The position numbers and the translations under genes are program-made. A stretch of DNA of 64,000 nt. Origin: Sapria himalayana (taxonomy: Eukaryota; Streptophyta; Magnoliopsida; Malpighiales; Rafflesiaceae). Every line of letters starts with the position of its first letter. Positions within the stretch are counted from its first letter, which is position 1. This document shows positions 27,412 to 59,469 of the stretch, one piece after another. The stretch spans positions 144,302 to 208,301 of the forward strand of contig JAREIK010000728.1 in the NCBI GenBank assembly GCA_029783825.1. Direction: 5' to 3'. The notes beneath the pieces are model-generated. The model was not told the DNA's origin and searched no databases. It saw nothing but the letters and a program-made list of their open reading frames with translations.

Positions 27412-27456
<45 letters not shown>

Positions 27457-33806: not shown

Positions 33807-33838
<32 letters not shown>

Positions 33839-34304: not shown

Positions 34305-35460
34305 AAATATAGTAAAATACCTCATCCACATTGAAAAATCCTTGTTCCAAAATCTCATGCATCTACAACTATCCATAAAAGTAGGCCCTCATGGAAACTA
34401 AGAGGGAGATGAGTGTGCAAGGGTGCTGGCACATAGTCGAGTCTCTTGGAAACCCTAGCCATCTCTTTCTATTTTAAATGGATGGTCTTCATTTCATTAA
34501 ATAAATATTTCTTGAGTCTTAAATATAAATTATAAGCCCAAGAATTAGTTTCAGGCTCATTCTAATGTGCATGATCATGTAGCTTGACATAATATTGATA
34601 GTGGTCTCAAAACTCATTTTGAGCTTATGGATTAATAGCTTAGGTCTCATAAGGCATATGACCACCCTAATTATATGAATACCAATAGTCAGATATAATC
34701 TAATTCATACTAAATATTACAGTTTATTTGTCTCATGATATCCTAACTGAACATACGACATGGAATAAATCAACACTATAAAGTTCAATTATGTAATTTC
34801 GTGATCTCCATGTGAACTTATAATACAAATAATATTAATATTCTTATTAATTAATTTGAGCACGACTAGGCAATTTTAGTCTCACATGTTGAGGAGCTCA
34901 TGGATATCTTTATAAAAAGAGGGCCAAACCCCTTTCATCCACTTGTGTCTCGCTACATGATTTCTTTCATGTCTAACTATAACTTTTATTACCACCCTAT
35001 TATAAATAATGTTAAATTATGTGAAAACATAAAGCTCCTAAAGTAGAGACCTATGGTGGTGCTAGGTCAAAAGATAAAAAAGATATTACATACATGTGAC
35101 TTAATCCATGTAGTATTCTTATGATGAGTTGGTCAAGTATAACATTCACTAATATATACTTATGAGTTGACTTATTATCACATATCCATGATCAGTAGAA
35201 CATGATCATCAATGATACTCTATACTAATCTTAATTCATTATTTCTCCATCAATAATAAATGATCATGGATAATTTAGAATAGCATTCTATGTCAAGTTC
35301 AGAGTTCTACTATCAAGTCATATATTTAATGACCAAGAGTGAAATCAACTATTCATGTAGTAAATTACCAAATTAGAAATGCGAGATGATATTGAAAATG
35401 CACTTTTATTATTGAAATCTAAAAGTATTAACAATGACACCATTATTATAGGGCATATCA
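34305..35460 (-). repeat. Copia 3' LTR (truncated at its outer end)
   Basis: Aligns in order with 57000-58150. Shared blocks include GGAAACTAAGAGGGAGAT / GAAACTAAGATGGAGAT, AACCCTAGCCATCTCT / GCTATATCCATCTCT, TCATTTTGAGC, TAATTATATGAAT, GACTTATTATCACATAT / GACTTAATAGCACATAT and the inner end GGCATATCA. Divergence is high, so the insertion is old. Confidence 0.88.
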
Positions 35461-36320
35461 ATAATAATATTCTACTTACACTAGGGCCAATCTGACATGT
35501 ATCTAATACCTTCTGACTTGTGACTTTATTAGTCTGGATTGGAGTTTAGTCGGTGTATCTATAATGTTATCATTAGTAGATACCCTACATATCTTGATAT
35601 CTCATCTCTCAAGAATTTCTCGGATGAGATGAAAACATCTAAGTATGTGTTTGGATCTTTGATGTGATCTAGGTTCCTTGTCCTAAGCTATAGCCCCATT
35701 ATTTTTACAAAACAAGGCCACAAGGTTGGAGATACTAGGAACCACTCCAAGTCTAATGATGAACTTCTTGATCAAAATAACCTTCTTAGATATGTCCAAT
35801 GCAACTAAATACTCAACCTCTATACTATAATCAACTATGGTGTCTTACTTTGAATAAATATAGCTAATAGTACACCAATTCAAACAAAACACAAGACTAT
35901 GATTTTTAATCAACTTTGTTAGGATGGAAGCTAGTATTAGTGTCATCATTTGCAATTAACTCAACTTGTCCTTCATGAAGTATAAATATATCTTTAGATC
36001 TTCTTAAGTATTTAAGAATATTCTTAATTACTAACTAATGGCATTCATCAGAATCTGACTGGTATCTACTAGTCATACTTAATGGATTTGACACATCCTA
36101 TTGAGTACACAATATATCATATATGTTAGATCCAATAATAAAGAAATTTGATATCTTACTCATGTAGTCTCACTCATTTGGCATTATTGAGCATTGAGCC
36201 TTTCTTAGACTAATTCCATGACATAGGCAATGATCCTCTTTTGGAGTTTTCATATTGACCCTATTTAATACATTACACACACACACACACACACACACAC
36301 TATCACTTAAGCCAATTATT
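35461..36320 (-). pseudogene. Copia RNase H and end of reverse transcriptase
   Basis: On the minus strand, about 35600-35770 reads LGVVPSISN, NNGAIA, EPRSHQRSKHILR and FHLIREIL. These are the C-terminal RNase H/target end of Tork-like copia polyproteins, including the DNNGAIA block and the HIxRRYHLIR block. Upstream (36150-36260) it reads NRVNMKTPKED and CHGIS, matching the family's RFNMENSKRG and PMSHGISLS. Stops are frequent. At 36277-36300 the coding sequence has been invaded by a (CA)12 expansion. The break at 36314-36320 is the target duplication of the foldback element. Confidence 0.82.
36276..36300. repeat. (CA)12 microsatellite within copia coding sequence
   Basis: A pure CA run lies between the copia GLS block and the NRVNM block, where intact relatives have only a few codons. 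It therefore looks like a local expansion within former coding sequence. Confidence 0.85.
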
Positions 36321-36539
36321 GTAATAATTGTGCACCCCACTTGACCTCAATCCTTAGGTACTTTCATGAGTGTTAACCAATTTCCCAACCCCCCACTCGG
36401 CATATCTATATTGTCCACTTTGCCCCTTAGAGCATACCATTTTTACACGCATCCTACATGTTGCTTCTCTTAGAATTTGAATTCGTGACCTCTAGTCAAC
36501 ATAGTTCCAAATGCTAGCACCTGAGTACTAGTTGACCTA

Positions 36540-36766
36540 CTTGGCTCAACTAGTACTAAGGTGGTAGGATTTAAAACTATATTGACTAGAGGTCACAAGT
36601 TAAAATCCTAGGAGATGTAATATCCGAGACATGTGTAAAACCATGTGGTATAATTGAAAAAGTAGACAATATCAATATGCTTGATGGAGAGGCAAAGAAA
36701 CCAGTTAACACACATGGTGCATTCTATGGATTGATGTCGAGTGGGGCCCATGTTTGTTATATATAA
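36540..36766 (+). repeat. Foldback arm with A-box and B-box-like motifs
   Basis: Reading outward from the module centre, TGGCTCAACTAG (36542-36553) resembles a tRNA A box. About 55 bases on, AAGTTAAAATCCTAGG is a decayed B box. The equivalent right arm of the next module keeps GTTCAAATCC (37173-37182), a full match to the GWTCRANNC consensus. The left arms carry the same pair on the minus strand (for example ATTCAAATCC near 37910-37920). This suggests that the arms derive from a tRNA-related, Pol III type sequence placed head to head. Confidence 0.5.
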
Positions 36767-37991
36767 ATGCATTTATATGTAACAAATGGTTCAACTAATA
36801 TTTTGTTGTAGGAATGAAAGGACTTGGGTTCAAGTCCTAGAGACATGACATACATGGCATGTGTAAAATTTTAAGCCCTGATAGGCAAAGTGATATGTAA
36901 CAAACATGGGCCTCACTTGACCTCGGTCTCAAGGTGATCTTAGGAGTTTTAATTGGTTGCCTGACCATCCATCGAGCATGTCGATATTATTCACTTTGCC
37001 CCTTAAAGCGCATGGTTTTATACATGACCAGTATGTCGTATTCCTATGATTTGAACTCGAGGCCTCTAGTCTATATAATATCAAATCCTAACACTCGAGT
37101 ACTAGCTAACCTATTGGGCTCAACTAGTACTTAGTTGCTAGGATTTTAGACTATATAGACAAAAGATCTCAAGTTCAAATCCTAGGGAAACAATATATTG
37201 GGTATGTGAAAAACCATGCACTCTAAGGGGTAAAGTGAACAACTAAATTTAAATACATAATTTAAATTCAGAGTTCTAATTAGATATATATTATAAAAAA
37301 AATAGCATGCCCCACTTGACCTTAGTCCCTGTGTAGCCCTTGAGTGTTAATCAATTTTCCAATCCCTATCAGACATATCAATTTTGTCTACTTTGTTCAT
37401 TAGGGTGCATGATTTTATACATGCCCTACATGTTGCATCTCCTAAGATTTGAACTTGAGAACTTCAATCTATTTAGTTCCAAATTTTAGCACATGAGTAC
37501 CAGTTGAACTAGGTAGGTCAACTAGTACTTTGGTGCTAGGATCTGTAACTATAGAGTGGAAGCTCAAATCCTAAGGAATGTGACATGAGATGCATGGGAA
37601 TAAGTCTTGACCCATGTATAAAATTGTGTGCCATAATAGGCAAAGAAAACAATATGAGTATGCCCAATGAATGGCTAGGAAATCTATTAACACTTAGGGA
37701 CTTTCACCATGGTCGAGTGGGGCTCATAATTGTTACATATAAATGCATTATATATGTAACAAATGTGAGCCTTACCCGACCTCAGTCCATGAGCGGCCTC
37801 GTGAGTGTTAACTAGCTGCTTGGCCCCCCACCAGGTACCATACATATTGATATTATCCACTTTGCCCATTATATTATGGTTTTACACATGCCCCACATAT
37901 TACATCTCATAGGATTTGAATTCATGACCTCTAGTCAATATAGTTTCAAATCTTAACACCTGAGTACTGGTTGACCACCAGTCATAAGGCC

Positions 37992-38008
37992 TCTTGGGGG
38001 TTGAGGTC
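37992..38008. repeat. L1 target-site duplication, left copy
   Basis: TCTTGGGGGTTGAGGTC here matches TCTCGGGGGTTGAGATC at 52278-52294 in 15 of 17 positions. It belongs to the foldback arm that the LINE entered. Confidence 0.9.
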
Positions 38009-38159
38009 ATAAAATTGATTATCTATTAACTCTCTCCCCTCTCTCCTCCCCAAAATCTCCTCAAAATCACAAGGTTTTTCTTCAATTTTCTCCAAATTTC
38101 TGTAACTTAGAATTTTTGTAACTAAGAATTTTTGTGTGATTTATTTTTAATAAACAAAG
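38009..38159 (+). promoter_or_regulatory. L1 5' untranslated region
   Basis: A pyrimidine-rich stretch (CTCTCTCCCCTCTCTCCTCC) precedes the first ATG. It begins directly after the target duplication, so the 5' end is probably complete. Plant L1 internal promoters lie in this position; no specific element can be named. Confidence 0.55.
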
Positions 38160-40707
38160 ATGGGTTTTAAGGGACTGCCCGACACTTTTCGTGATAAAAA
38201 AATAAGCAAAACCCTAAGAAGTGCCGAAAACTCTCTCGAGTCTCAGGTGCCCGTGTCGTCGAAATCACCGACACCAAATTTCCTGGATGAATTTAAAAAT
38301 AAAATCCAAAGGAGAAGGCGTGTTGTCTACTCAAAATATGATTCAGAAGCCATTGAATACTTGATTGATGATGGGAATAGCCAAAAAATCATCTACGGTA
38401 AGATTTCAGCCTCCCTGATTGAATTCCTCTCTGAAAATCTTCACGAAAACAAAATTTCTTTCGATATTTATGTGAAATTTCATATTTATGTAAATTTTAA
38501 TGGAGTTTTGAATGTTTTAAATGATATTACGGAGGAAAACAAAATGGGAAAGCATGAAAATATCATCCTAAAGGCTGATAAAGATGATAATGAGCATTCT
38601 GTAAGAGGTATTTCAAAAAAATCTCATGAAATCTCAACTTCTGTAATGAATGGGAAATCTATTGTTAATACAAACATTAATAGAAATTCAAATGATTTTA
38701 ATGATATTTTGGAGGAAAATAAGGAAATCACAAATTATTTTGTGCATCCCAACTCTTTGCCGAGTTGCTCTCTGCACATGAACTATATTGATTCGGGTAT
38801 GCCAAGTGATAATAATGGTGATTTTCAAAAAATTGGTGTTTCAAATGATATCCCAAATAAAACTAATGAGATTCCAAATACTTTAAATGCTTATTTGTAG
38901 GAACATTCTTCGCGAAATGGTGTTTTTCTTAATGATAATGGTTTTCAAAGAGTTTCAAATAACACCCGGGATGGGAACAGCCATAATCTTTTCTGGCCGA
39001 TTACTAATGGAGGTAGAAATGAGCATACGGGCAAAGGTATGTCTCCTCACCTTGGATATGAAGATGGTATAGGTGTTGCTATAAACCACTTCTCTCTTCG
39101 ATTGATTCAAATTTATCGCTTGCATGTAATGATATATGGGGGAAACTAAATATCCCAAGTGAAATTATTGGGTCTCTGTAGTAATAGTGATAGAACTGGA
39201 GCCGTTGTCACTGACTCTCATAATTCTAGTACCTCAAACTTCTGTTCGAGTGATAACAATGTGGCCCCCAATGATAATCTGCTTGATTTAAACTCCTCAC
39301 TAAAGGATGACAGTCTTAATGAGGACTATGTCTCACCTTCTGTGGGTGTAGCTAATGGCATATAAAGCAATGAGGCCCACCCTGAACATAATAATAAATA
39401 TGATATAAGCTTGGTATAAGTCAGAAACTTGAACAATGTGGATGCTGTTAATGGCATGAGAAATATTGATACCTCTGTGTACAGTTGAGCAATCATGTAA
39501 TAACCTCTATAGAAACTAGAAATCTGAATGATAGAGGAAGAAATAAGGTTATTAAAAATTTTCAAGCCCTGCCAATGGGCAAGGACCTAAAGGAATGGAG
39601 ACCCATAGGCCCTATAATACATTATAAAAATATTGTTAAACATCAGAATGATAGCGATAATAGGAAAGGCACTTTCCCCAAAATATATGAGAAAAACAAG
39701 ACACCCTAGAGCAGTCTTTTTGCTGAAAATAGATTTCTGGCCAACACTACAAAACTATCCTACCTCCCCCTAAACTTCCTGGTAACACATTCTTCGAAGG
39801 ACAGGACCTACTCAATGGTATTGGACATTGAAAAAATTATTTGGTGTGATACTTTGTGGCCTGAAATCCTAGATATCTATTACTAAAAAGATTTATTGAA
39901 GAATAGTGAAAAATAATTCCACAAGTTATTCGGCATCAAAGTAGTTGGATGATTTTCAAATTTAATAATTCGGAGAAGATGGAGGATGCCCTCAATGCTA
40001 GCCCATTCCTAGTTTTTAGTCGGCCACTATATGTCAAACCCCTCCTAGTTGGTTTTCACTACGGGTTAAAAGAAATGACTAAAATTCCAATTTGGGTTAA
40101 ATTTCCTAATTTCTCGATTCACCTCTAGAACGTAATGGGATTGAGTAAAGTGATAAGCTATCTTGGCCAGTCTTTACATATGGACAAATTGATGTCAAAT
40201 ATCTCAAAAATAGCATTCGCTAGAGTGCTTGTAGAGATTGATTTGAATGGTGAATTAATGGATGAAATCTATTTGAACTTCCTGGATAGATCTAAAATCC
40301 GTCAACCAGTTATCTATGAAAACCTTCCCCCGTATTGTAAACTTTGTTCTTTATTTGGACATTCGGTAAATAACTGCTATGTCAAGAATAAAAACCAGGA
40401 GCTGGAAGAGGGAGATCCCCCAACAAGCCCGATAGCTTCAAATTGCTCGGTAGGGGCAGTGGAAAGAGATCCCCCCTTGGTGGAAGGCAAATGTCTGATT
40501 GAAGATGTACCAGAGGAGGAGGCTCTAAAGTCAAAGACCAAGGAAAAACAAAATGATGACGAAGATCAAGGTTTCACCATGGTCAAAGCAAGGAGAAGAA
40601 ATAAACTCCCAGGCAATGCAAGGGAGGGGCCTTCTTTAAACCTAAAAAACAAGGGAAGAATCAAAGAAGGAGAACTAGGGGACTCTGCCCCATATGGTCC
40701 AGCATAG
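38160..40707 (+). pseudogene. L1 ORF1 protein (DUF4283-like region, CCHC zinc knuckle), broken
   Basis: ORF1 would coat the LINE RNA. An open segment of 246 codons starts at ATG 38160. After a stop at 38898-38900 it continues through shifted frames, with a Ser/Asn-rich linker (39160-39360). Matches to the DUF4283 region follow at about 39720-40130. The open frame 40135-40707 reads IAFARVLVEIDLNGELMDEI (a typical DUF4283 C-terminal block). It then reads PPYCKLCSLFGHSVNNC, a CX2CX4HX4C knuckle at 40336-40377. The tail is Lys/Glu-rich with FTMVKARRR, typical of plant L1 ORF1. At least three stops or shifts disrupt it. Confidence 0.85.
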
Positions 40708-41727
40708 AGTGGTTCCAGTGGTCCTCAACCATTTAAAAAAGATTGTTTGTTGTGTTGTTTTTTTAGATGGAGGTTTTTCGTATGGAGCTTTGGAGGGTTG
40801 CCTAGGAAGAGAACTACACTTTCCTGTTTATATTTTCTAAGGGTTATTTTGGGATAGGCGGGGGCACCCTAGGTATGGTTTCTTTGTGGCGGATGATTTC
40901 AAATTTCAAAGGCAACAATGCATCCAGTGGAGGAAACAAGCTTGCTCCTTGCTGCCTATTTTTTAAAACTATAATCTGGAAACAGATTACTCATATGAAT
41001 GAATGCATGATAAGTCCTCAAGGTTTTAAAATAGCATTATACTTGGCAGAATATACATGAGTAGGTTCCCCCTATATTGTAATAGAATGTATTTAGAAGA
41101 TACTTATTATCTGGTAAATCTGGGAAATGCCCCTAATGTTTGAAACTGTAATGGAGCCACGCCAAAGAAATTATCGAGTATGAGCACAGATGTCGGAGCC
41201 TTTGAGACAAATATTGTAGAGCATATGCTTAAATGTATGTTATGTTTTGGAATCTCAAAAAAAAGAAACTTCCTAGATGCAATGTGCCAAAAATTTATGC
41301 ACTCGGATAGGGTTTTATCTCCTGGATGCTTTCCAAGTCAATTTTGAATGGGGAAATGGCTCACGTATGGTTGCTGAATATATTTATATGCATGATATCT
41401 ATGATTGTGTTGGGGCCCTCTTGGGTTTCTTCGTGTATTTAAAGGTGGGTTATATTCTGTATTCGAAAGAGTACTATGTTCTATCCAGGAGCTATGAAAA
41501 GATGGGATTTTCTTGTATATCTCACTCATGGAATGTATTAAATGAGAATGAGGTAAGAGAGGTATGTTGGGGTACACTATTTTCTGAGCTTTATGCAACA
41601 CTTTGTAAGGCTATATTTGTATGCATGGACATATCTGGAGATTATCTATTCAATGCATGCTACATGGAATGCTATGTAACCATTAAGCAAATTAAGAAGG
41701 TTATGGTAGATGGAAAACTATTTTAAC
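40708..41727 (+). other. L1 inter-ORF region with an unassigned open frame
   Basis: About 1 kb lies between the end of ORF1 and the ORF2 start. It contains an open frame of 149 codons (41277-41726), rich in Tyr, Cys and Phe, for which I recognise no domain. Plant L1 elements often have a shorter spacer, so this could be element sequence, a captured fragment or chance. Confidence 0.4.
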
Positions 41728-42082
41728 ATGAAGATCATGAGTTAGAACATAAGGGGCTTCAACTACCCTATAAAACACAAAGAGATCCTTATACTTTTCA
41801 CTGCATATCAAATTGATATCTTTGCTATCATTGAGGCCAAACTAAACTGTGAAAAGGTTGTCAGCTCATGAAAACAAAGTTCAAGAAGTTTAGCTCTCTT
41901 GATAATTTTTCCCACCATAAGAATGACATAATCTTAATTCTGTGGGATAGTCAAACCACAAAGATAGAAATTCTTTTTTGCAATCCTCAACACGTTCATC
42001 TACATGTTTAAGACATAGAAATAGGAATAAATTTTAGATTGTTAGTCATATATGAACAACATTCTATCACTAGTAGAAGATC
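41728..42082 (+). pseudogene. L1 ORF2, endonuclease N-terminal part
   Basis: ORF2 opens at ATG 41728. The first residues (MKIMS, stop, NIRGFNYPIKH) match the plant L1 endonuclease start MKIxSWNVRGL with Trp replaced by a stop. A FAIIEAKLN block follows, carrying the expected catalytic Glu of the AP-endonuclease fold. The reading ends at the gypsy insertion (target duplication 42078-42082) and continues at 48106. Confidence 0.82.
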
Positions 42083-42904
42083 TGATGCGGGAGCATTCGA
42101 AACTACTAACCAATCCTTTAAGTCCTGAGTAGATTCCTTCGGCAAAACATACACTATTGATGCTTATTCAAGTCAATACTAACTTCGGTTACAATTTGCT
42201 TTGATGGGTTAAGGAAAGATGATCCCAATATTAAAATTCGTTGCTGATCGATGCTATATCAAAAGGGAGTTATTCAGGTTAATTTCCGTGGTGATTCAAT
42301 GTTCTTTGGAAGTGGATATTTGCTGGTTAATATTGGCGGACGAATTTCGAAGGCTGAAGAGCAAATTCCTATTTCCCTTTTTTTTTTATTTTTTTGTTTT
42401 TTTTGTTTTTTTGTTTTTTTGTTTTTTTATTTTTTTATTTTTTTTTTATTTTTTTTTTTATTTTTTCTGAGTCTAATCTCTATATAAGGAGACATATTCT
42501 CATTTGTAAGGGTCATTGTTTTTGAATGAATAAAAGTTCTTCTTTGTGAGTTGAATTATTATCTTGATTCTTTATCTAATGTCATTGGTGGTGAATCAAA
42601 CAGTTCTTTATCCTTGGTAAGTGGAATTTTTTTTAAGCCTTGGTGGTGAACTGCATTTATTTCGAATTACAAAATCCCCACAAACACAGTGCCTCATCCA
42701 ATTCCTCCTAGAATCGCTCACTCCACAGAGCTTATTCAGGGATACTATAAATACGAAAGTTGTAGATCTACGAGTCCTTGATATGTGGCTTTTGGAATCG
42801 GGTCAATCCGACATGTGTTGAAAAAGTTACCATTTTTTTCAAAATCATGCAATCCTAAAAATTTTAAATTTTCTACTTGGAGTCACTCGCCCACGCACGC
42901 ATCA
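42083..42904 (+). repeat. Gypsy 5' LTR
   Basis: 822 bp, TG...CA. It aligns throughout with 47334-48105. The segment at about 42378-42470 is a T-rich tract (TTTTTTG and TTTTTTA units) that is much shorter in the 3' LTR. A TATATAAGG box at 42481-42489, followed by a TTGTAAGGG stretch, is the likely promoter. Confidence 0.94.
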
Positions 42905-42907
42905 AGT

Positions 42908-42920
42908 TGGTATCAGAGCT
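42908..42920 (+). promoter_or_regulatory. Primer-binding site for initiator tRNA-Met
   Basis: TGGTATCAGAGCT, three bases after the 5' LTR, is complementary to the 3' end of plant initiator methionine tRNA and would prime minus-strand DNA synthesis. Confidence 0.93.
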
Positions 42921-42973
42921 CAAGGTTGAACTTATCTTGAGTGATTCCTCTATGTTGTTATTTTTTACTTATC

Positions 42974-43950
42974 ATGGATGAAGGATAAGTTCCACGAGGT
43001 TTGACTTTGGAGCAAGTGCACAACCTAAGGCGAGATCATGCTATAGAGAATCTCCAAAGGCAAATAGAGCAAATTCTCAATCTCTTAGAGAACCCGGCGA
43101 GACAAGAGCAACCAGTAAGGCGTCCCTATGTTCAGCCACACCATGATGATTTAAATTCGTATCACAATTCTAAATGATGATTTTGATTTCACTGAAGGCA
43201 ACTTTAGTGCCTCTGAGCACCGAGTTCGAATAAGAAGAAGACACCATGAGAATGACCGTGAGATTAAAATAGATGTACCTGAATTCGAGGGAAGTCTCAA
43301 TCCTGACAACTTTATCGATTAGCTCCATGCCATTGAACGAGTTTTTGATTTCAAGTCCTACTCAGATGAGAAGAGGTATAAAATCACTGTTTTGAAACTT
43401 ACTAAATATGCTTCTCTATGGTGAGAGAATTTAAAGCATCGGCAGGCTAGAGAAGGGAAAAATCGAATCAACTCTTGGGATAAACTTAAGAAACTCATGA
43501 AAAAGATGTTCTTGCCCGATACCTATAAGTAAGATCTGTTTCTCAATTTGAATTCCGTGTGACAATGAGGGATGAGTATTGAAGAATATATTCGTGAGTT
43601 CAAACAACTCATAATGAGATGCGAAGTTCCAGAAGTTCCCGAGCAAACCATCGCTCGATTCCTTGGTGGCATGAATCAGAAAATTGCTGATTTGGTTGAA
43701 CATCAGCATTATTTGTCCTTTGAAGATGTTTGCAAGCTAGCAATGAAGGTTGAGAAATAACTAAAGAGAAGCAAGAGGTTTTCTTCCAAAACCTCCTCGA
43801 ATGGGACTTCCTATTTTAGGGATGCTTCCTCAAACAAATATGAAAGTATTTTGTCAAAAGCTAAGGATAAAGAGAAGTTGGTGGAACCCATCAAAGAGAC
43901 CAGCATGAAAGTTGATGGTGACACAAGGAAATGTTTTAAGTGTCATGTCT
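42974..43950 (+). pseudogene. Gypsy gag (capsid and degraded zinc knuckle)
   Basis: Begins at ATG 42974 with MDEG then a stop. A coiled N-terminus (LTLEQVHNLRRDHAIENLQR) leads into the retrotransposon gag domain: VPEFEGSLNPDNFI, LHAIERVF, LKLTKYASLW and MSIEEYIREFKQLIMRCEVP (43572 on). The knuckle reads CFKCHVYG and is then shifted, with FQANYPSW continuing in another frame, so the CCHC box is broken. Several internal stops are present. Confidence 0.85.
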
Positions 43951-46900: not shown

Positions 46901-47333
46901 GTATGGAATCAATCCGCTCACACCGATTAATTTAATTCCTATTCCATCTAATTCACAAGTGAACTTTGATGGCAAATAGAGCTGAATTAATGAAAAAACT
47001 CCTTAAGCAGATTCGAAGCAAGATTGAGAAGGCTAACGAGTTTTATAATAAGAAAGCTAATAAACATCGGAGGAATGCTCATTTCCAGCCAGGTGATCTT
47101 GTGCGGTTACACTTAAGGAAGGAAAGATTTCCTTCTCAGCAAAAGAACAAGCTTATGCCTAGAGCTGACTGTCCATTTGAAATTCTTGAGAGAATAGGCA
47201 AAAATACTTACAATATTGATCTTCCTAGAGAATATGGAGTTTCGGAAACTTTTAATGTTGGTGATCTTTCTCCTTACTTGGAGGATGAAGACTTACTAGA
47301 TTTGAGGACAAATCTCAAGCAACCTGGGTATAA
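43951..47333 (+). pseudogene. Gypsy pol: protease, reverse transcriptase, RNase H, integrase
   Basis: Protease region at 44160-44500 carries MIIDGESCTNVT and CHLLLGRPW. Reverse transcriptase at about 44730-45370 includes GLPPIRGIEHQIDL, MCVDSRDINNITIKYRYPIP and the active site YFDD (45277-45288). RNase H at 45690-46060 shows [12 protein letters not shown] and HSDHEALKFI. Integrase at 46230-47290 has an HHCC region (REAHGGGLACHFG), [10 protein letters not shown] with the first Asp, [11 protein letters not shown], and [10 protein letters not shown] with the Glu. The tail (FQPGDLVRLHLRKERFP, NVGDLSPY) contacts chromatin in relatives; no chromodomain was seen. Frames are broken at about 45099, 45361, 45480, 46096, 46383 and 46818. 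Confidence 0.9.
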
Positions 47334-48105
47334 TGATGCGAAAGCATTTGAGACTACTAATCAATCCTTAAGTCTTGAGCAGATTTCTTCGGCAAAACAT
47401 ACACTATCGGTATTTATTCATGTCAAAACTAATTTCGGTTACAATTTGCTTCGATGGGTTAAGGAAAGATGATCCCAATATTAAAATTTGTTACTAGTCG
47501 ATGCTATATCAAAATAAAGTTATTCAGAATAATTTCTATCATGATTCAATGTTCTTTGAAAGTTGATATTTGCTGGTTATTATTGGTGGACGAACTTCGA
47601 AGGCCGAAGATAAGACTCCTATTTCCTATTTTTTTTAGTTTTTATTTTTTTTTTATTTTTTCTGAGTCTTATCTCTATATAAGGAGACATATTCTCATTT
47701 GTAAGGGTCATTGTTTTTGAATGAATGAAAGTTTCTTTTTGTGAGTTGAATTATTATCTCGATTCTTTATCCAACATCGTTGGTGGTGAATCAAATAGTT
47801 TTTTATCCTTGGTAGGTGGAATTTCTTTTAAGCCTTGATGGTGAATTACATTTATCTCAAATTACAAATATCCCCACAAACACAGTGCCTCGTCCAATTC
47901 CTTTCAGAATCACTCACTCCATAGAGCTAATTTGAAGGGATACTATAAATAGGAAAGTTGTATATCTATGAGTCCTTGATCTGTGGCTTTTGGAATTGTG
48001 TCAATCCGACATATATTGAGAAAGTTATGCCTATTTTCTTTGAAATCATGCAATCCTAAAAATTTTAATTTTTCTGCTCGGAGTCACTCGCCCACGCATG
48101 CATCA
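47334..48105 (+). repeat. Gypsy 3' LTR
   Basis: 772 bp, TG...CA, the counterpart of 42083-42904. It starts right after the end of the integrase frame. Only a poor polypurine tract is visible before it. The TATATAAGG box recurs at about 47676. Confidence 0.93.
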
Positions 48106-50288
48106 AGATTCCTCTGGGAAAACTCACTGGAAAAAGGAAAATCACAAGCCCTTCCGTGGGCTATTATTGGGTATCTTAACTCCCCACTTTCTAGATCATA
48201 TAGAATAGGTGGGAGAATTGTGACTAATTATGAGTGTTAAGCTACACTTGAATGCATATCCTCCTTAAATCTAGATGCTTTGCTCTCCTCAAAAATTTAT
48301 TTCACCTGAACAAATGGAAGAGTCTCTAGCAAACTCGACAGAGCAATGGTAAATAGTGAGTGGGAAAACTTGTAGTTGGACAATCTTGTAAGATTCCTTG
48401 CCCCATGGACCTTCTCAGACTATTGCTCAATGCTAATGACTACTAAAGTTGGAGAAAAAGAAAGGAAAATACCTTTCAAATTCTGTAACATGTGGACCTC
48501 TCACAAGCAGTTCACACCCACATTACTTGAAGTATAGAAATAAATATTCAAGGGTCAAATATGTTCCAAATAACTACAAAGCTGAAAAATCTAAAGGAAC
48601 CCCTAAAGAAGCTGAACGAGAAACATATTGCACACATTAGTGCAAGGGTATCCTACTCTAGAGATGCTGTCCATAATTTTCAAAAAGAAATTCTGAAGTG
48701 CCCAGATCAGGCTCTTAAAGATAAGGAGTTATCCCTCAAAACCAAAATGAGGAAATTGGAGGAAGCCGAGTTATCTTTCCTTAGGCAAAAGGCTAAGATA
48801 AACTATCTCAAACAAAATGATAGGTGCACAAAGTTTTTCCATGCACTTATGAACTCCATGACACGAAAATGCAGAATAGTAACTATTATTGGAAAAGATG
48901 GAAACTACACCACATTAAAGGAGGAGATAGCAGTTGCTTTTGTCAAATATTTTAAAAATATTGTAGGCACATCGTATGACACTGACAGTGTTAACACTGC
49001 AATCCTTGCTGATGGCAAGACTCACGATCAATGTGACCAGGAATTACTATCTTTTTCTTTCACATCTGAAGAAATTAAGAATGCCCTTTTTACTATGGGA
49101 AATTCTAAATCACCAAGCTTAGATGGTTATACAGTGGAGTTCTACAAATCTTCATGGAACCATATTAGAGGTGATGTAGTAAAAGTAATTAACAGCTTCT
49201 TTCACTCCGGAAGAATGCTATATCAAATTAATCATGCATATATTGCATTGATACCTAAATCCTCTCATGCCTCGACTGTCAAAGATTATAGTCCAATATC
49301 ATGCTGTAATATAATTTATAAAATTATTGCTAAACCTTTTGCATCAAGGTTGAAATTAGTGTTGGGTGGTATAATTAACCCAGCACGAAGAGCCTATATA
49401 AAAGGAAGATTAATTTATGATAATTTTCTTCTGGTGCAAGAGCTGATTAGACGTTATGCAAGGAAAATAATCTTTCCTAGATATTTCTTTAAAATAGACA
49501 TCCAAAAAACCTTTGATATAGTTAGCAGGGATTTCTTGAAACAAGTGTTGACTAAATTTTCCAGAATTTTTCATCAAAATTGTGTATGAATGCATTAGTT
49601 CCTCGTCATATTCAATTTCTATAAACTGATAGGTACATGGATTTTTCAAAGGTAAAAGAAGATTAGACAAGGGGATCCTATATCCTCCTATCTATTCGCC
49701 TTGTGCATGGAATACCTCTCTAGACAGCTTAATTCTGCAATATCATCAGAATATTTTTCATTTCATTCTGGTTGTGCCCCATTAAAGATATCCCATTTGG
49801 TATATGCGGATGATCTGATCATTTTTACTAGAGGCAACCTTGCATTTATTTATATTATTCTGGATGTGTTGAAAAAAATTTCAGCTACTTCGAGTCTTCA
49901 CATAAACTCTTCCAAATCGAATATCTTTTTTGGATGAGTAAGTAATGATCTAAAAGGAAAAATCCTAGAAACCCCTGGATATAATGAAGGCAATCTTCCT
50001 TTTGTATTCCTTTGGGTTCCTTTATCATCTAGTCATTTAATATCTTCATAACTTTCTATATTATTAATGAAGATTACAATATCTTCAATCGTCATCCATC
50101 AATGGGCAGGGAAACTACTATCTATAGCTGGAAGATTAGAATTGCTATGCACAGTCATACAATGCATTAAAGGATACTGGTTCTTAGTATCCTTTCTGCC
50201 AAATTATATTATAAATGCCATTGATAGTGCATGTAGAATATTTTTATGGGATGCACCCAAAAGCAAAAGATACAAGCCTAAAGTCTAA
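48106..50288 (+). pseudogene. L1 ORF2, endonuclease end and reverse transcriptase
   Basis: Resumes the endonuclease: LPWAIIGYLNSPL (family LPWxxxGDFN), YRIGGRIVTNYE, TNGRV and SKLDRAMVNSEW, followed by an FSD-type motif. From 48561 a 342-codon open segment reads FLRQKAKINYLKQNDRCTKF, SPSLDGYTVEFYKSSW, YIALIPKSSH, and FFKIDIQKTFD. A frameshift follows at about 49585. The segment 49701-49937 then carries the reverse transcriptase active site YADD (49803-49814) in HLVYADDLIIF. It continues to RLELLCTVIQ and CRIFLWDAPKSKRYKPKV, where the Harbinger-like insertion begins. Confidence 0.9.
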
Positions 50289-51408
50289 GAGAAACTCCAT
50301 TGGGAGTTGCCAAATAGGGGTGCCAAATATCATTTTGGCACCTTGAATATTATTTTGGCACCTCAAATTTTTTTTGCTCTGATGGTAGGTGCCATAATGA
50401 GATGCAAACTTAATACTTTAATATATTTTTATTATAAATTATCATTTAAATTCCAATTTAAGACATATTAAATAATGACTAAAAAATAAAACCCTGCTTT
50501 TTCATAACTTCCATCTTCAAGTTATTCCAATATGTTACAGAAATTTAGTCTATGCTAGTAGTATCAGTTTCCAAAATTTTCATCTCATTTTGTATTTGAA
50601 TTTCTTGCACATTTTTTTCTTCAATTTCTAACTGTTCACGATGTTGCTCCAATGTTATCTCCTATTGAGCATAAATTTTTTCATGTCGCTCAATTTTTTG
50701 TCGTTCTATTCCCATTCTTTCATTCCAGTGATAATAATCTAGTGATCTTTCAACATTAATTTGTTTATTTTTGTTTTTATGTTTTTTCTTTGAAGCTTTT
50801 TTGCCCAATGGCCTATTGAGGTTGAGAGAGGATGATGGTTTAGTGCTGTCCCCTAAACATGGAGTTGAATAGCTGGATTCAACATGAGTTGATTCATCAT
50901 GACTACCAGTTGAATGAGTTTTTGCTCTCTTATTGCTGGTCAAATTATCATTCTATTTCCACTCCAATTTCAATATATTCCAACAATGCTCGTATTGAAA
51001 TGGTTTTCCAATTATCTTAGCAAATATTTCTTTCGCTTCATCAAACTAAACCAATTTGAAATAATTCAACAAATTATTAATATATCAAATCTCGCAAGTG
51101 TCTAAATTAAAAGTATAAATCTTACATTATTTTGCTCGGTATGTCCAGTAGCATTCCATTCAATTTTATAAAATAAATTACAATATATCCGTTGGATAGA
51201 TACGTTGATATGTACAATAAACTAACCGCTATTTTGCATATTCTATTTTCTCTCTCCAAGGTTGCCATTTATGGCACCCCAATTTCATGTATGTCATTTT
51301 GGCAACCCAGATGTCATCCTCGTTGGAGCTAAAAAAATAATATTTTAGGTATCATTTTGGCAGTTACGGAGATGGCACCCCATATAGTAACATCGATTAG
51401 AGTTGCTC
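50289..51408 (-). mobile_element. PIF/Harbinger-like element with a decayed ORF1
   Basis: The inverted ends are GAGAAACTCCATTGGGAGTT and, on the complement of the right side, GAGCAACTCTAATCGATGTT. The flanks are TAA (50286-50288) and AAA, close to the 3-bp TWA duplication of PIF/Harbinger elements. Removing the insert rejoins L1 ORF2 (KPKV then KWRNVCMP). On the minus strand at 50662-51040 is a protein relic: DEAKEIFAKIIGKPFQYEHC, WNILKLEWK, a stop, then RPLGKKASKKK and a charged coiled tail. This resembles the SANT/NAM-associated ORF1 partner of plant Harbinger transposons. The DDE transposase itself is absent, so it is non-autonomous. Confidence 0.78.
50662..51045 (-). pseudogene. Harbinger ORF1-like (NAM-associated / SANT-type) protein relic
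   Basis: An open segment of 93 codons (50943-50662) is preceded in the same frame, across one stop, by DEAKEIFAKIIGKPFQYEHC. The KPFxxxHCW block, the Pro/Ser-rich linker and the RPLGKKASKKK-type block followed by a Glu/Arg-rich helix are the usual order in plant NAM-associated domain proteins. In Harbinger elements this partner carries the transposase to DNA and into the nucleus. The Myb/SANT N-terminus is missing. Confidence 0.7.
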
Positions 51409-52230
51409 AAATGGAGAAATGTATGTATGCCCATTTCCCTAGGAGGTTTCAACATCCTAAACACCTCTCTATGGAACAAAACATCTTTTATGAAAACCCT
51501 TTGGAGGATCAATCGGAAAAAAGATTTATTTTGGAATAAGTGGGTTCGCCACTTTTATATTAACTCTCAAAATTTATGGGACTATCGGGCTGCTAAAGAA
51601 GACCCCCCATTTAGGAAGTCCCTAACTTCGGTTAGGGATATCTTAATATCAAAAACTAAATCAAAGGATCAAGCAAATATATTATTGAATAAATGGGGGG
51701 ACGGTGAGAAAATTATTACGGATGCATATAAATTTCTAAGTTGATTTAGTAGACAAGAGGAAAAAAGCTAGACAAAAATCATATGGGGGAAAAATCATGT
51801 TCCCAAACATGCTGTACATTTATGGATTGCTAACCATGGAAAATTAACCACAAAAGACCAACTATTTTCAACTCCCAAAAGCATAAATTGTGAATTCTGT
51901 CCATCCACAGAATCCATGGGCCACTTGTTATTTGGATGTAGGAACACAAAAAGTATTTGGAGCACACTGAATAGTTTGATGGGGCTAACACTTAAAATTG
52001 ATTCCTTACCATCAATTCTTGAAGAGATGGCAGCAAGCTATATAGCAGACATGTCAAAGAACAATATATGCAAAGGAATTCTTGCAGCCACCGTATATCA
52101 AATACGGAGAGAAAGAAATAGAAGATATTTTGGGGGAAAGTCACACTATGCATATTTTTTAATTAGGAAAATCAAAATAGATATTCATATTATTTTTAGC
52201 AAATATTATAATAGTTTGAATCATCTCTAG
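51409..52230 (+). pseudogene. L1 ORF2, C-terminal part with zf-RVT domain
   Basis: After the Harbinger-like insert the frame resumes KWRNVCMPISLGGFNI (family VCxPKxxGGLGI), then SLWNKTSFMKTLWRINRKKD and FWNKWVRHFYI. A stop at 51742-51744 is followed by the zf-RVT domain: HVPKHAVHLWIANHGKLTTK, CEFCPSTESMGHLLFGCRNT and KSIWSTL. ORF2 ends at about 52230, 40 bases before the A-run. Confidence 0.88.
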
Positions 52231-52277
52231 GGTTGTACAGAATTTTTGATATTAAATTTTATTACTTATCAAAAAAA

Positions 52278-52294: not shown

Positions 52295-52316
52295 GAGTGG
52301 TGCCCACAATTGTTAT

Positions 52317-53160
52317 AATTCTTCTTTTATTTGTCTCCATATATCTTAATCCTCAGAATATAGGTGGTCTCACCAAAATCATTTAGTAAGAAACAAATAC
52401 CTACCCAAAACTTGATATTCTACATATCTAAGATATCATTTCCTATGAAAAGATGTCATCACCATTAACCAATAAAAAAACTATTGTGCTCCCACTAACC
52501 TTCTTGTAAACATATGGTTCATCTTCGATTTTGAAAAAACTAATTACATTTTAATTGTTTCATAAAATGAAGATTCCAAATATGAGATGCTTGCTTCAAT
52601 CTATAAATGGATAATTAAAGCTTGTATACCTTTCCAACATTCTTAGAATTGATAAATCACTTTGATTGTGTCGAGTACATATCCTTAAGCAATTTTCCAT
52701 TAAGGAATGATTTTTTGTCATCTATTTTCCATATTTCATACTTATAGTACATACCTATGGATAAAAGGATCCTACTAGACTTGAACTTAATAATTGGTGA
52801 AAAACATGAATCATAGTCAATACTATATGCTTACTTGAAACATTTTCGACCAATCCTACCTTAAATATATTCATATTAACATGCTGGTATTCTTTTTGAA
52901 GGTCTACATGCACCATATAGTATTTAGACTATTAGATGGATCAATCAAGATACAAACTTCATTATCATATATGGATTGTATCTCATATTTTATGGCTTCT
53001 ATCCATCTATTGGAATCTAGTCTAGATATGGCCTAATGGTAGGATTTGAACTCATCATAATCCATGAAAATGTCATCATGGTTATTAGTTATAAGAAATC
53101 CATAACTTTTGGGATTTTGAAGTATCCCACCATACCTTCTTAGTTCTTGTGTTACTTGCA
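52317..53160 (-). pseudogene. Copia reverse transcriptase
   Basis: On the minus strand, from about 53040 downward: a degraded WxEAMKSE start (EAIKYEIQSIYDNEVCILID), WCM*TFKKNT, and EDEPYVYKKVSGS-like residues split over two frames. A mutated active-site region (family YVDD; only GDDI-like residues remain) and GNDI follow, and then GETTYILRIKIYGD. The frame runs into the foldback element at 52323 and continues at 36313. There are many stops. Confidence 0.8.
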
Positions 53161-54270
53161 TAGGTTAACATCTTGTGAATCCTATTGAGTTTCTATAATT
53201 GGTTTAATACTTCTTTGTGGTTCTTGAATTTCTTCAAGTTGAACTTTACTCTCACAAGTTTTTTCGAACATGTGCTTTCTTTCCAAAATGATAGTATTTT
53301 GAACAATAAATACTTTGTTCTCGAAACTATTGTTGTAGTACCCTTTTGTTTCTATAGGATACTCAACTAAAAGACATTTATCTATTTTGGATGCTAATTT
53401 TTTAGAGAATTGATGATTCACATAAACTTCATAGTCCCAAAACTTTTACAAAGATAAACTAGGAAGCTTCTCACTCCATATCTCATATGATGCCTTTTGA
53501 ACTAATTTAGATGGAATGCAGTTAAGTATGAATGTAAAAGTTTATAAGATATAATCCCATAATGATATTTAAAGAACTGATTGACTCATCATTGATCAAA
53601 CTATATCTAATAAGATTCAATCTTTCCATTTAGAAATCCCATTCCATTAAGATAATCTTGGTGGAGTCAATCACGAAGCTATTCTATAATCTTTATGATA
53701 GTCATCAAATTATTGGCTCATGTATTCACCATCTTGATCAGTTCAAAATACTTTAAGAGTTTTACTAAGTTGGTTTTATATGTCATATAGATATAACCAT
53801 ATCTGATATATATATATATATATATAACTATATCTACTATAATAATCTACAAAGGCAATGAAGTATTAATAGCCTCGTATGAAAATATAACTTAATGGCC
53901 CACATATATCATTAAGTATAAGGCCTAATAAGTCATTACTTTCACTATGACCTATAAAAGGAGTCATTATTTTTTTGAGTAAACAAGATTCACATATCTT
54001 ATAAAATTTAAAATCATAAAGATGTAAAAACCTATCATCATGGAGCTTGGAAATATGCCTCTCATTTGAATTTGTCAAGGTTTAGGATATAGAAACTATT
54101 TGTTAAGTGAATATTTCTATAAAAGGTATTACCATAGGAAATAGAGAAAATATTATTATTAATAATAAAAGAGAATCCAATAAAGCCAAAACAATAAATG
54201 AAAATAATATCCATATTCATAGCTAAAGCAGTAGCTCTTGATCCATTTCTTGCTCAAAGGTCTACCCCAC
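53161..54270 (-). pseudogene. Copia GAG-pre-integrase and integrase
   Basis: At 54078-53866 the minus strand reads ERHISKLHDDRFLHLYDF, CESCLLKKIMTPFIGHSE, LLGLILNDICGPLS, the pre-integrase to integrase junction with the CxxC of the zinc-binding part. Decayed integrase follows, including an insertion of TA dinucleotides at 53807-53825. At 53421-53182 it reads FSKKLASKIDKCLLVEYPIE and TKGYYNN, the family's SDKLxxKSDKCFFVGYPKET region after the integrase. Upstream (54100-54240) a GNTFYRNIHLTNSFYIL block is also copia-like. The protease and zinc knuckle seem to be deleted. Confidence 0.85.
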
Positions 54271-54900
54271 CTTAAGCATCCCTTGTAGCTCAAAAATTAT
54301 TTTCTCTATGTTATGCATATTATAGTTCATTACATAACCATCATATGCATTTGGTATGGATTAGAGAATGATATTGATATCTAACTCTTGGTTAATTATT
54401 AGACCAAGCTTCTCAAGTTGATCTAAGAAGCCCTTCAATTTTAAGAAACGAGGGCTAACTGAGTTGTTTGCAATTATTTTGCTAGAAAGTAACACCTTGA
54501 TGGTGACAAACATTTCAATGTGGGCATGCTTTTAGAACATTTTCATGGGATGGCCTATCATGAAAAATGCTTATATATTAATCATTTGTTTCTGAAGCTT
54601 AGATTCCATGGTGGCAAGCATGAGGCATGTAACATTGATTGAATTATTTTTGTTCTTGTTATAAATATGCTTTTGATCCATAGAGGTATTTATTGTATAT
54701 TCTTCAGGGAAAGGTTCATCTAGGACATACTTTTTTTCTTGCATGAGAATGATTCTCAAGTTTCTATGATAGTCAAGGAAGTTAGCCCCATTAAGTTTGT
54801 CCTTCTCAAGATTGATTGTAGTGATAAAACTAGCATATTGTTCGTTACCATTATCTACAAGGCATATGCAAAATAATTTATTATTTCAATAATTAAATAA
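54271..54900 (-). pseudogene. Copia gag
   Basis: From about 54840 downward the minus strand reads EKDKLNGANFLDYHRNLRII, then MQEKKYVLDEPFPEE, the start of copia gag proteins of the UBN2 type. Later blocks include PRFLKLKGFLDQLEKLGL and PNAYDGYVMNYNMHN (family QSLPxSYDxFVMNYNM). Stops and shifts are present. No zinc knuckle is seen before the frame decays. Confidence 0.82.
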
Positions 54901-56879
54901 AAAATGCATAAATAACTTTCACTAAATATTACCAAATAGTTAACTCTCTTGTATTAATTAGGCAATTTAAATACTTGAGACTTTAGTGGGCCAAGACCCA
55001 TATTTCAAAAAACTCAATGTTAGTTTTGGCTTACCACCCAAAGTATGGTTATTAGGTAGGTAATTATTTACATATTGTATCTTATCCAATACTCGAAATC
55101 CCATGGGACTTGACACTTACATGTCATATGAAAAATCTCGTTAATGCCCTAGGTCTAAAATTATTTTAACAACCTTGTTAAGTTCACCAAACTCATACAT
55201 ATGTATATCACCACTATCTAGAATGTCTTTCTAAGATGGATTACATACCTTGCTTTGGCATGGCATATGTAGTCATTCAAAGTCTTGACAAGTGTAGAAT
55301 TATGAAAGGCATTTTATGATTCTATTTCTAGTGAGGGATTTAATTTATGTTTTAATTCTACCTCATCATCATTTGAATAATTATACCTATTTATCCATCA
55401 TACCATACATATCATCACACACACACACACACACACATTTTATACCATTATATATATTTAATGGTATAAAGTAAACATGTCTTAGTATGGTCCAAAACTA
55501 GATTAATCTTCATAAACCAATATGAAGATCAAAGGTCAATCCTAGGTAGACATCCCCATCTCTATAGATTTACGAAGAATATGCCAAATGGTCCCTACCA
55601 TGGAGTCAGGGTATGAGAAGGATGCATTCTTTTCCACATCTTAATATTTAGCTTAATGTCCATTCTTGAGCATCTATTTATCTTTATAACTTGAAGGTTG
55701 TATTTAAATAATATACCTCAAAATTATTAATAAATAAATATATAAAAATGACACACGGGTCATATTTAAATTACATAGCCCAAAATACTTTAAAATTAAA
55801 TTGACATTTAAATCAAATGTCCAGAATGGCCTAAGGGTCGTGCTATGAACCATGCATATTTTTTTTACAAATGCACAATAACTATGTCAATAATTATTGT
55901 GTAGTTCATTAAATATGAACTCACCATTAATAATAAATAATAATAATAATAAATAGGTTATTATACAAACATAATTAAATATCTTATTAATCAATTAATG
56001 CACCCTAAACCATTATTATTAATAATTCTTGTATAGTTCACTAAACACAAATTTATCATTAATAATTATAAATAATAATAGTTATGATATATGTATCATA
56101 ATACATAAATAATGAAATATCTTATCTATTCAATAGATACACTCTAAAACTATTATTATTAATATTATTAAAAATTATTGGGTAGTTTATTAAACATAAA
56201 TTGACCATCAATAATAAATAAATAATAATAGCTAGGGCATATGTATCCTAATACACAAATAATTAAATATCTCATTTATTCAATTGATACACCCTGAAAT
56301 GGTTATAATTAATATTATTAATAATTCATGTGTAATTCATTAAACATAAATTCATTATTAATAATATATAATAATAGTTAGGATCTGTGTATCGTAATAC
56401 ATAAATAATTTAATATCTCATTTATTAAATTGATACATCCTAAAATCATTATTATTAACATTATTACATAATATTGGTATGATGAAATTTTTCTAGGGGT
56501 CTAGGGGTAGTGCCAATGCCCCTGAAGTTTTTTTATATAAGGACATTTCATCTATGCCAAAATTCTATTACTTTATGTATAAACTTTCTCCATCGCAACT
56601 GTCAACTATTGAAAACAATGCCTACAAACTAAACACAAGATCATGTTAATTAGATTAACATTTCTTCATCGAATACCATTGTCCTTCATGATTCTAGAAT
56701 TTAAATATTTTTTACATAATCATATATGTTTGTATGCATCAATTTTACATAAAGACAACCTTTAATGAACAATACAAATCATACACATTCTTAACACATA
56801 AACATGTGATCTTGAATACTAGAAACATATCAATATGCAATTAAAAACAAGGAATCATATCAATTGGGGTTACAAGTCA
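54901..56879 (-). other. Copia leader region with a tandem-repeat block
   Basis: About 2 kb between gag and the primer-binding site, non-coding. At about 55860-56480 a unit of roughly 140-150 bp repeats about four times. CACCCT-like words recur at 56001, about 56139, 56290 and 56436, each followed by TTATTATTAATAATT- and AACATAAATT-type words. A CA run lies at 55417-55437. It may have been a long 5' leader or contain an unrecognised insertion. Confidence 0.65.
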
Positions 56880-56890
56880 CTCTGATACCA
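56880..56890 (-). promoter_or_regulatory. Copia primer-binding site (initiator tRNA-Met)
   Basis: The minus strand reads TGGTATCAGAG one base after the LTR end (ACTCCAACA), the usual tRNA-iMet primer site. This fixes the orientation of the element. Confidence 0.9.
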
Positions 56891-56891
56891 T

Positions 56892-58150
56892 TGTTGGAGT
56901 TTTTCTTAAGGAAATTAAGGATACATGTACAACGGAACAACAAAAATCACTTTTAATCCCAACCAAGAATCTATGTGATTCGATCATATGATTGAGAAAT
57001 TGAAAATTACCTTATTTGCATTGAAAAAAAGGTCTGCTCCATAGCCTCGTGTATGTTTCTAAGCCTCCATTCCAAATAAGAAGGCATAGCATGGTCATTC
57101 CACCTTCTACATGCATCACATGAACAAACTCTCCTAGAAACTAAGATGGAGATAAATGTACTATCACTTGGTTGAGTCTTTTGGAAGCTATATCCATCTC
57201 TCTCTATTTAAAATGGTTGATGATCTTCATTTTCAATAAATGAAGATTCCTTGGTCTTAAATACTAATTTTAATCCAAATGATTAGTTTTCACCCCATTC
57301 TATGTATGTGATCTTCTAAGTTCACCTAATATTGGCAATGAACTCAAAAATCATTTTGAGCCCATATATTAAAAGTTTTCTCTAGCAAGATATTATGACT
57401 ACCCAAATTATATGAATTTTATTAGTCCAACATAACCTAATTTATAATAAATTTCATAGTCCATTTATCTCATTGTATCTTAATTGAATACAAGACACGT
57501 ACTAAGTATCCTCTTGTAAAGTTCAATCAGGCAATTTCTCAATCTTCACATGATCTGATAATAAAAATAATATTAATGCCATTATTAATTCATTTGAGCA
57601 TGACCATTCATTTCTAGTCCCATATATCAAGGGGCCCGTGGATATTTTTCTAAAAAGAGGAACAAACCCTTTTCATCTACTCATATCCCTCTACAAGATT
57701 TGTTCTATATCCAACTATAACATGCATTACCACCCTATTACAAATTGATGTTGAATTGTGTCAAAACATAAAGCTCGTCAAGTAGAGATTTATGGTAGTG
57801 CTATGACAAAGGATAGAAAGAAGATATTACTATGATGAGAAATAAGTATGACTTATAATTCATGTAGTATTCTCATGGTGGGCCAGTCCAGTACAAATGT
57901 ACAATGTTCACTAATATGTACTTATGAGTTGACTTAATAGCACATATCATGATCAGTATAACATGATCATTAATCTTATTCATGCTAATATTAGTTCATT
58001 ATTTCTTCATCAATATTGAATGACCCGAGCAATTTAGAATAATATTCCATGGCAAGTCTAAGATTATACTATCAAGTCACACACTTGATGACCATGAGTG
58101 GAACAACTATTCATGCAATTAATTAATAATCATTGCCCTATGGCATATCA
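56892..58150 (-). repeat. Copia 5' LTR
   Basis: 1259 bp on the minus strand, from TGATATGCC (ending at 58150) to CTCCAACA (56892), so TG...CA. It aligns with 34305-35460 from about 57000 onward. Confidence 0.85.

Positions 58151-59413: not shown

Positions 59414-59469
<56 letters not shown>

What the first reader, a model, noticed from the sequence alone, without database searches (positions are those of the whole stretch)
34305..58150. Four-level nested transposon stack with readable order of insertion
Copia (minus strand) was entered by a foldback element, the foldback by an L1 LINE, and the LINE by a gypsy and a Harbinger-like element. Each level has a target duplication: AATTATT/AATTCTT, a 15-of-17-bp match, AGATC/AGATT, TAA/AAA. 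Removing each insert restores the next sequence: copia KRRIGLS, the foldback arm, L1 endonuclease, L1 KPKV-KWRNVC. This gives a relative chronology from sequence alone.
Basis: partly seen in the sequence, partly recalled or inferred. Interest (0 to 1): 0.75.

Follow-up and report, generated by a model that had tools for sequence, protein, structure and literature searches.

The report
Nested transposons in a plant genome
Five mobile DNA elements of a plant genome sit one inside another, and relatives elsewhere in the same genome that lack the inserts confirm who jumped into whom; it is an unusually clear example of a well-known pattern.

Summary
A minus-strand Ty1/copia element (about 34.39-58.16 kb) was entered by a foldback array (36321-52316), that by an L1 LINE (38009-52277), and the L1 by a Ty3/gypsy (42083-48105) and a PIF/Harbinger-like element (50289-51408). 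L1-in-foldback rests on a 15/17 duplication (0 of 200,000 random pairs as good) and a 3' end shared with a paralog. LTR divergence fits: copia K2P 0.279, gypsy 0.127. Caveats: gypsy and Harbinger are not ordered by nesting; copia's outer left end and own duplication are unresolved; in both LTR families same-element LTRs are no closer than other copies; most relatives read Ser, not Lys, at the Harbinger site. Ordinary in kind. Least ordinary is the foldback: about 225-bp arms, mostly in alternating orientation.

The parts
34388..35467 (-). Copia left LTR (3' LTR of a minus-strand element); outer left end not resolved (reader: 34305)
   Evidence: Homology to the right LTR over 34388-35367, 77.1% of 966 sites; inner end about 35427-35467 aligned to the right LTR end
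35468..36313 (-). Copia interior, downstream part (after the foldback site in copia sense)
   Evidence: Its 35900-36313 stretch follows the upstream part directly in 27 of 29 other copies
36314..36320 (.). Target duplication of the foldback, left copy AATTATT
36321..38008 (.). Foldback array, left part: arms 36320-36539(-), 36542-36767(+), weak 36788-36893(+), 36892-37113(-), 37117-37243(+, short), 37298-37511(-), 37514-37743(+), 37750-37977(-), then a shortened last arm
   Evidence: Scan with a profile made from the window's own arms, self-comparison, hairpin fold of the first unit z = -12.6
37992..38008 (.). Target duplication of the L1, left copy TCTTGGGGGTTGAGGTC (foldback sequence)
38009..52277 (+). 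L1 LINE, about 7.1 kb without its inserts (arithmetic); DUF4283 and weak zinc-knuckle pieces, reverse transcriptase, zf-RVT, short A-tail
   Evidence: Pfam on pieces; 3' end shared with paralog C1468, 5' homology to paralogs from 38026 and 38037 on; the exact 5' end is set by the duplication
42078..42082 (.). Target duplication of gypsy, left copy AGATC
   Evidence: one copy at the uninterrupted site of paralog L040
42083..48105 (+). Ty3/gypsy element; LTRs 42083-42904 and 47334-48105, ends TGATGCG...CGCATCA; weak gag, strong RNase H, integrase zinc-binding and Tf2-type SH3 pieces in order
48106..48110 (.). Target duplication of gypsy, right copy AGATT
50286..50288 (.). Target duplication of the Harbinger-like element, left copy TAA
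50289..51408 (.). PIF/Harbinger-like element, internally deleted; several relatives are about 640-720 bp longer in the middle; minus-strand frame 50665-50952 weakly like NAM-associated domains
   Evidence: Many genome copies start at or near query base 1 and end at base 1120; 88-90% identical over the left part, 71-91% over the right part; weak Pfam match
51409..51411 (.). Target duplication of the Harbinger-like element, right copy AAA
52278..52294 (.). Target duplication of the L1, right copy TCTCGGGGGTTGAGATC
52295..52316 (.). Foldback array, right tail, ends ...TGTTAT (inverse of the left end GTAAT...)
   Evidence: Aligned with the arm tails
52317..52323 (.). Target duplication of the foldback, right copy AATTCTT
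52317..56891 (-). Copia interior, upstream part: weak gag-pre-integrase piece, integrase SH3 piece, reverse transcriptase up to the foldback site
   Evidence: Pfam on pieces; relatives; relative L021 matches RVT_2 across the site
56892..58156 (-). Copia right LTR (5' LTR), beside a primer-binding-site-like GATACCA (recalled motif)

Best explanation
The stretch is a record of five independent transpositions into one spot of a plant genome. A copia retrotransposon inserted first (its neighbourhood today is TA-rich). A non-coding foldback array then inserted, with a 7-bp duplication, inside the copia reverse-transcriptase gene. An L1 inserted, presumably by target-primed reverse transcription, near the right end of the foldback with a 17-bp duplication. 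A gypsy element (5-bp duplication) and an internally deleted PIF/Harbinger-like element (3-bp duplication) then each entered the L1. Shown: containment, ends (except copia's outer left end), duplications, uninterrupted relatives for three junctions, LTR divergence. Inferred: the enzymes that did each step, that the foldback moved as one unit, and any calendar age.
For: Copia flanks adjacent in 27 of 29 other copies, spacing constant to within 9 bp (4 to 13 bp shorter than in the window, which has a CA repeat there); at 90% identity these 29 fall into 16 groups, 14 of which show it. RVT_2 covers the site in copy L021. L1 flanks adjacent at the gypsy site in 19 of 19 other copies (17 groups), 17 of 19 within 3 bp of the spacing expected with one AGATC; at the Harbinger site in 19 of 19 (16 groups), all within 1 bp of the spacing expected with one triplet. 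L1 3' end shared with paralog C1468, which by eye has a flanking duplication of its own. 15/17 duplication. Gypsy ends TGATGCG/CGCATCA. Copia LTRs more diverged than gypsy LTRs.
Against: No duplication found for copia itself; its outer left end is decayed. In both LTR families the window's LTR pair is no closer than different copies, so pairing is not shown by a tree (support 21 for the copia pair; a presumed pair of another element, C3544, does not pair either). Two of 29 copia copies gave no downstream match (L015, L036). L1 in foldback was not tested on an uninterrupted relative of the array. The L1 endonuclease and the gypsy reverse transcriptase gave no Pfam match.
Confidence: 0.95

Rival explanations
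1. Part of the stack comes from assembly error or later rearrangement (inversion, ectopic exchange between copies) rather than from successive insertions.
For: The families are repetitive (393 copia and 1595 copia-LTR candidates at first look), so misjoins are possible; the two copia LTRs are no closer to each other than to other copies.
Against: Each of the four inner junction pairs carries a target duplication, and relatives show three of the sites uninterrupted with constant spacing. A misjoin would not be expected to produce this.
Confidence: 0.03
2. The foldback is not one transposon but several palindromic MITE-like units that piled up at one site by repeated self-insertion, or a short satellite-like array.
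For: Eight loci hold 3 to 12 arm matches each, mostly in alternating orientation: 38 of 45 neighbouring pairs alternate, 32 of 38 without the window's own locus. Of the 7 other loci none showed a clear short target duplication around its array; some of these arrays are cut short.
Against: In the window the array as a whole is bounded by inverted ends and one 7-bp duplication in copia. I saw no short duplications between inner units by eye; not tested formally.
Confidence: 0.3
3. The copia at the bottom is two copies, with its flanking LTRs from different insertions, so its LTR divergence does not date the insertion.
For: Right LTR is closer to C4657 (K 0.224) than to the left LTR (K 0.299); near-star tree; no copia duplication found.
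Against: Same orientation, with one interior of copia order between them; the presumed LTR pair of another element of this family also fails to pair (C3544a/b K 0.320), as an old burst would give; C4657 has a short branch (0.053).
Confidence: 0.1

Closest known systems
Nested LTR retrotransposons of plants (PMC6911290, outline and abstract read; PMC7251063, passages read)
   Same: Younger elements inside older ones; relative age read from containment; LTR divergence as a check.
   Different: Those studies treat LTR-in-LTR pairs; here five elements of five types form four levels.
Foldback transposons: Tetris of Drosophila virilis (PMC4079207, passages read), Tm1 of root-knot nematodes (PMC3169594, passages read); plant FARE and Tnr8 (seen only as references there)
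   Same: Long inverted repeats with internal repeats, variable copy structure; no coding capacity noticed here.
   Different: Tetris and Tm1 have tandem subrepeats inside each terminal repeat and mostly 8-10 bp duplications; here whole arms mostly alternate in orientation and the one clear duplication fits 7 bp best.
Plant L1 LINE, Ty3/gypsy with Tf2-type SH3 domain, PIF/Harbinger MITE-like derivatives
   Same: Domains, ends and duplication lengths.
   Different: Nothing notable; the Harbinger copy lacks about 640-720 bp present in several relatives.

Membership tests
Nested insertion stack | Inner element bounded by its own ends and a duplication of the outer element's sequence | tested here: met
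   Four of four inner junction pairs; the gypsy and Harbinger duplications are weak by themselves
Nested insertion stack | Outer element continuous without the insert in relatives | tested here: met
   27 of 29, 19 of 19, 19 of 19; for L1 in foldback only the arm alignment
Ty1/copia | RVT_2 reverse transcriptase, integrase upstream of it, LTRs | tested here: met
   RVT_2 E 8e-70 in uninterrupted relative L021; SH3_retrovirus E 3e-6 upstream in the window; LTRs. RVT_2 was not tested on the window's own pieces
Ty1/copia | 5-bp duplication around the element | tested here: inconclusive
   Outer left end not resolved
Ty3/gypsy | gag, reverse transcriptase, RNase H, integrase in gypsy order, LTRs, 5-bp duplication | tested here: met
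   RNase H E 7e-26, Integrase_H2C2 E 5e-17, SH3_Tf2-1 E 1e-19; gag E 1e-4 just under its cut-off, rve E 0.03; LTRs; AGATC/AGATT. The piece 44645-45097 gave no Pfam match
L1 LINE | ORF1 with RNA-binding knuckle, RVT_1, A-tail, long variable duplication | tested here: met
   DUF4283 E 1e-10, zinc knuckle only E 6e-4, RVT_1 E 2e-9 and 2e-13, zf-RVT E 8e-11
L1 LINE | Apurinic-type endonuclease domain | tested here: inconclusive
   No Pfam match in window pieces or in paralog L040
PIF/Harbinger | TWA triplet duplication and terminal inverted repeats (recalled definition) | tested here: met
   TAA/AAA; GAGAAACTCC and, inverted, GAGCAACTCT by eye; many copies share these ends
PIF/Harbinger | DDE transposase or Myb-like ORF | tested here: inconclusive
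   Only a NAM-associated match at E 0.013, below the curated cut-off
Foldback element | Long, internally repetitive inverted repeats able to form hairpins | tested here: met
Foldback element | Mutator-like 8-10 bp duplication | tested here: inconclusive
   7 bp fits the ends best in the window; 9 bp is possible only with unequal ends (by eye); not seen in 7 other loci

The most novel reading that the evidence does not exclude
The foldback family is a transposon type of its own in which about 225-bp arms multiply in alternating orientation (head to head, tail to tail), so that arrays of about 3 to 12 arms arise, for instance by hairpin-primed copying, and jump as one unit of variable length with a 7-bp duplication.
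Probability: 0.15. Interest if true: 0.45.

Novelty: new member of a known kind. Interest (0 to 1): 0.22.

Why it matters
A stack whose junctions are checked against uninterrupted relatives of the same genome is a good test object: it orders elements of five types at one place without any clock (except gypsy against Harbinger), and shows where the clock (LTR divergence) agrees and where it is weak. It tells nothing new about transposition as such. The foldback family might repay study, because a multimer of alternating arms moving as one is not the usual picture.

Tried and rejected
tRNA origin of the foldback arms (A- and B-box-like motifs): ARAGORN found no tRNA in 36000-38200, Rfam listed no tRNA (E up to 5 in the region; E up to 1 in L002-L008), and the consensus of 41 full arms from 8 loci scored no better than shuffles (193 of 500 as good); rejected.

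Rfam miRNA matches (MIR7533, MIR7526 and others) lie far below their gathering scores and would follow from any long hairpin; rejected.

A 9-bp, Mutator-like duplication for the foldback needs unequal element ends; 7 bp with GTAA-type ends fits better (by eye). Not excluded: other copies show no clear short duplication.

Copia outer left end: local alignment of the outer part to the right LTR is weak (2 of 200 shuffles as good); left open.

Pairing of LTRs by tree: no power, near-star phylogeny (10 rows, 8 of them from other places, out of 40 scored and 1595 first-look candidates).

Paper searches were read as listings; passages or outline of four papers were read. One search listed nothing. 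None listed a family of alternating foldback arms, but only titles and abstract starts were seen and the library is open-access only.

I mended: the lower arm number (3, not 4), the Harbinger length difference (640-720 bp, not one value), the 9-bp test (inconclusive, not failed), the wording on L1 ends and on Pfam strength.

Full report
What was checked. The window lies in an unnamed 2.06-Gb genome in 18,497 contigs, a plant by its element families (my inference). I read the region directly, compared it with itself, tested pieces against Pfam and searched the genome with one flank of three junctions and with pieces of the elements. These searches score only the best 40 candidates each, so copy numbers are lower bounds.

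Level 1, copia. Two LTRs in the same orientation, 34388-35367 and 57131-58125 in their clearly alignable core, are 77.1% identical over 966 sites, K2P 0.279, SE 0.021. The right LTR runs about 56892-58156, next to a primer-binding-site-like GATACCA (motif recalled). The inner end of the left LTR lies at about 35467 after an extra stretch of some 60 bp. The outer left end and the copia's own duplication are not resolved: the outer alignment is weak, 2 of 200 shuffles as good. The interior reads on the minus strand with a weak gag-pre-integrase piece (E 0.041) and an integrase SH3 piece (E 3e-6) upstream of the reverse transcriptase; piece 54574-54885 gave no match.

Level 2, foldback in copia. 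The foldback lies inside the reverse-transcriptase gene. Of 29 other copia copies fetched with one flank, 27 have the other flank adjacent and two (L015, L036) gave no downstream match. The spacing in the 27 is constant, 4 to 13 bp shorter than in the window, which has a CA repeat in that flank. Three of the 27 (L016, L017, L019) carry an interruption of their own further on. The 29 are not independent: at 90% identity they form 16 groups, 14 of which show the site uninterrupted. I printed the site of 12: six read K-[RK]-[IL]-I-G-L-S, five depart by one or more residues, one showed no such reading. In relative L021 a single open frame with RVT_2 (E 8e-70, residues 51-295) covers it. Relatives L011 and L020 read, on the window's plus strand, CCAATTATTCTTTT; the window has AATTATT before and AATTCTT after the insert, and the insert's ends are GTAAT... 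and ...GTTAT, so a 7-bp duplication fits best (by eye).

The foldback itself. It is an array of arms of about 225 bp, head to head and tail to tail. A profile of the window's arms finds 3 to 12 arm matches in each of the eight loci that cut out; 38 of 45 neighbouring pairs alternate, 32 of 38 without the window's own locus. The first unit folds into a hairpin far beyond shuffles (z -12.6, 0 of 100 as good). The genome search gave 220 matches from 40 scored of 462 first-look candidates. The last arm in the window is shortened. I noticed no transposase, so the enzyme is unknown.

Level 3, L1 in foldback. The foldback sequence TCTTGGGGGTTGAGGTC (37992-38008) returns as TCTCGGGGGTTGAGATC (52278-52294), 15 of 17; none of 200,000 random pairs from the region match as well. 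The L1 ends at 52277 in ...CTTATCAAAAAAA, at the same place as paralog C1468, which by eye has a flanking duplication of its own; the other paralog fetched, C3431, departs at 52033. At the 5' side homology to the two paralogs starts at 38026 and 38037; the exact start 38009 is set by the duplication. After the L1 the sequence goes on as the tail of a foldback arm. Pieces carry DUF4283 (E 1e-10), a weak zinc knuckle (E 6e-4), RVT_1 (E 2e-9 and 2e-13) and zf-RVT (E 8e-11). Without its inserts it is about 7.1 kb (arithmetic).

Level 4, gypsy in L1. LTRs 42083-42904 and 47334-48105, 88.5% identical over 766 sites, K2P 0.127, SE 0.014, with ends TGATGCG...CGCATCA and duplication AGATC/AGATT. In 19 of 19 other L1 copies (17 groups at 90%) the two flanks follow each other; 17 have the spacing expected with one AGATC to within 3 bp, L041 and L046 are short by 54 and 143 bp.

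Level 4, Harbinger-like in L1. Element 50289-51408 between TAA and AAA. In 19 of 19 other L1 copies (16 groups) the flanks follow each other with spacing within 1 bp of that expected with one triplet; the triplet is TCA in 15, and once each TCG, TTA, ACC, AAA. Many genome copies start at or near the same base and end at the same base; several have about 640-720 bp more in the middle than the window copy. Because both sit in the L1 apart from each other, nesting does not order Harbinger against gypsy.

Chronology. It is a soft test: a study of fifteen plant species found the order reversed in 1042 of 4126 nested pairs (PMC7251063, passages). Moreover the window's LTR pairs are not closer than LTRs of different copies: for copia the left LTR is the seventh row against the right one, itself included, and the tree of 10 LTRs is nearly a star; for gypsy the partner LTR is the tenth row, itself included. 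This fits old bursts in both families. With the often used rate of 1.3e-8 per site and year (recalled, not from a call) the values would be about 11 and 5 million years; the rate for this plant is unknown.

Verdict. The pattern is well known in plants. What is least ordinary is the alternating-arm foldback, which I could not place in a superfamily.

Noticed in passing
4667-6433 (-): Uninterrupted 588-residue frame of a hAT-like transposase (hAT-like RNase-H fold E 3.5e-11, weak BED finger), perhaps a younger DNA transposon.
   Followed up: partly
56014-56472: Tandem repeat of about 150 bp, 3.1 copies, between copia's right LTR and its coding part; not clear whether it is copia leader or a later insert.
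   Followed up: partly
L003, both sides of the array 1260-2210: The foldback array there is flanked by a direct repeat of about 65-75 bp, far longer than any usual target duplication (0 of 200 shuffles as good).
   Followed up: partly
182-681 and 1150-1642: Direct repeat 83-86% identical at a spacing of about 965 bp, possibly LTRs of a small element.
   Followed up: no
22949-24722, 27035-27492, 33472-34180, 58335-59509: TA- and CA-rich degenerate microsatellite, on both sides of the copia.
   Followed up: no
7339-9090: Repeated blocks at a spacing of about 1.0-1.1 kb.
   Followed up: no
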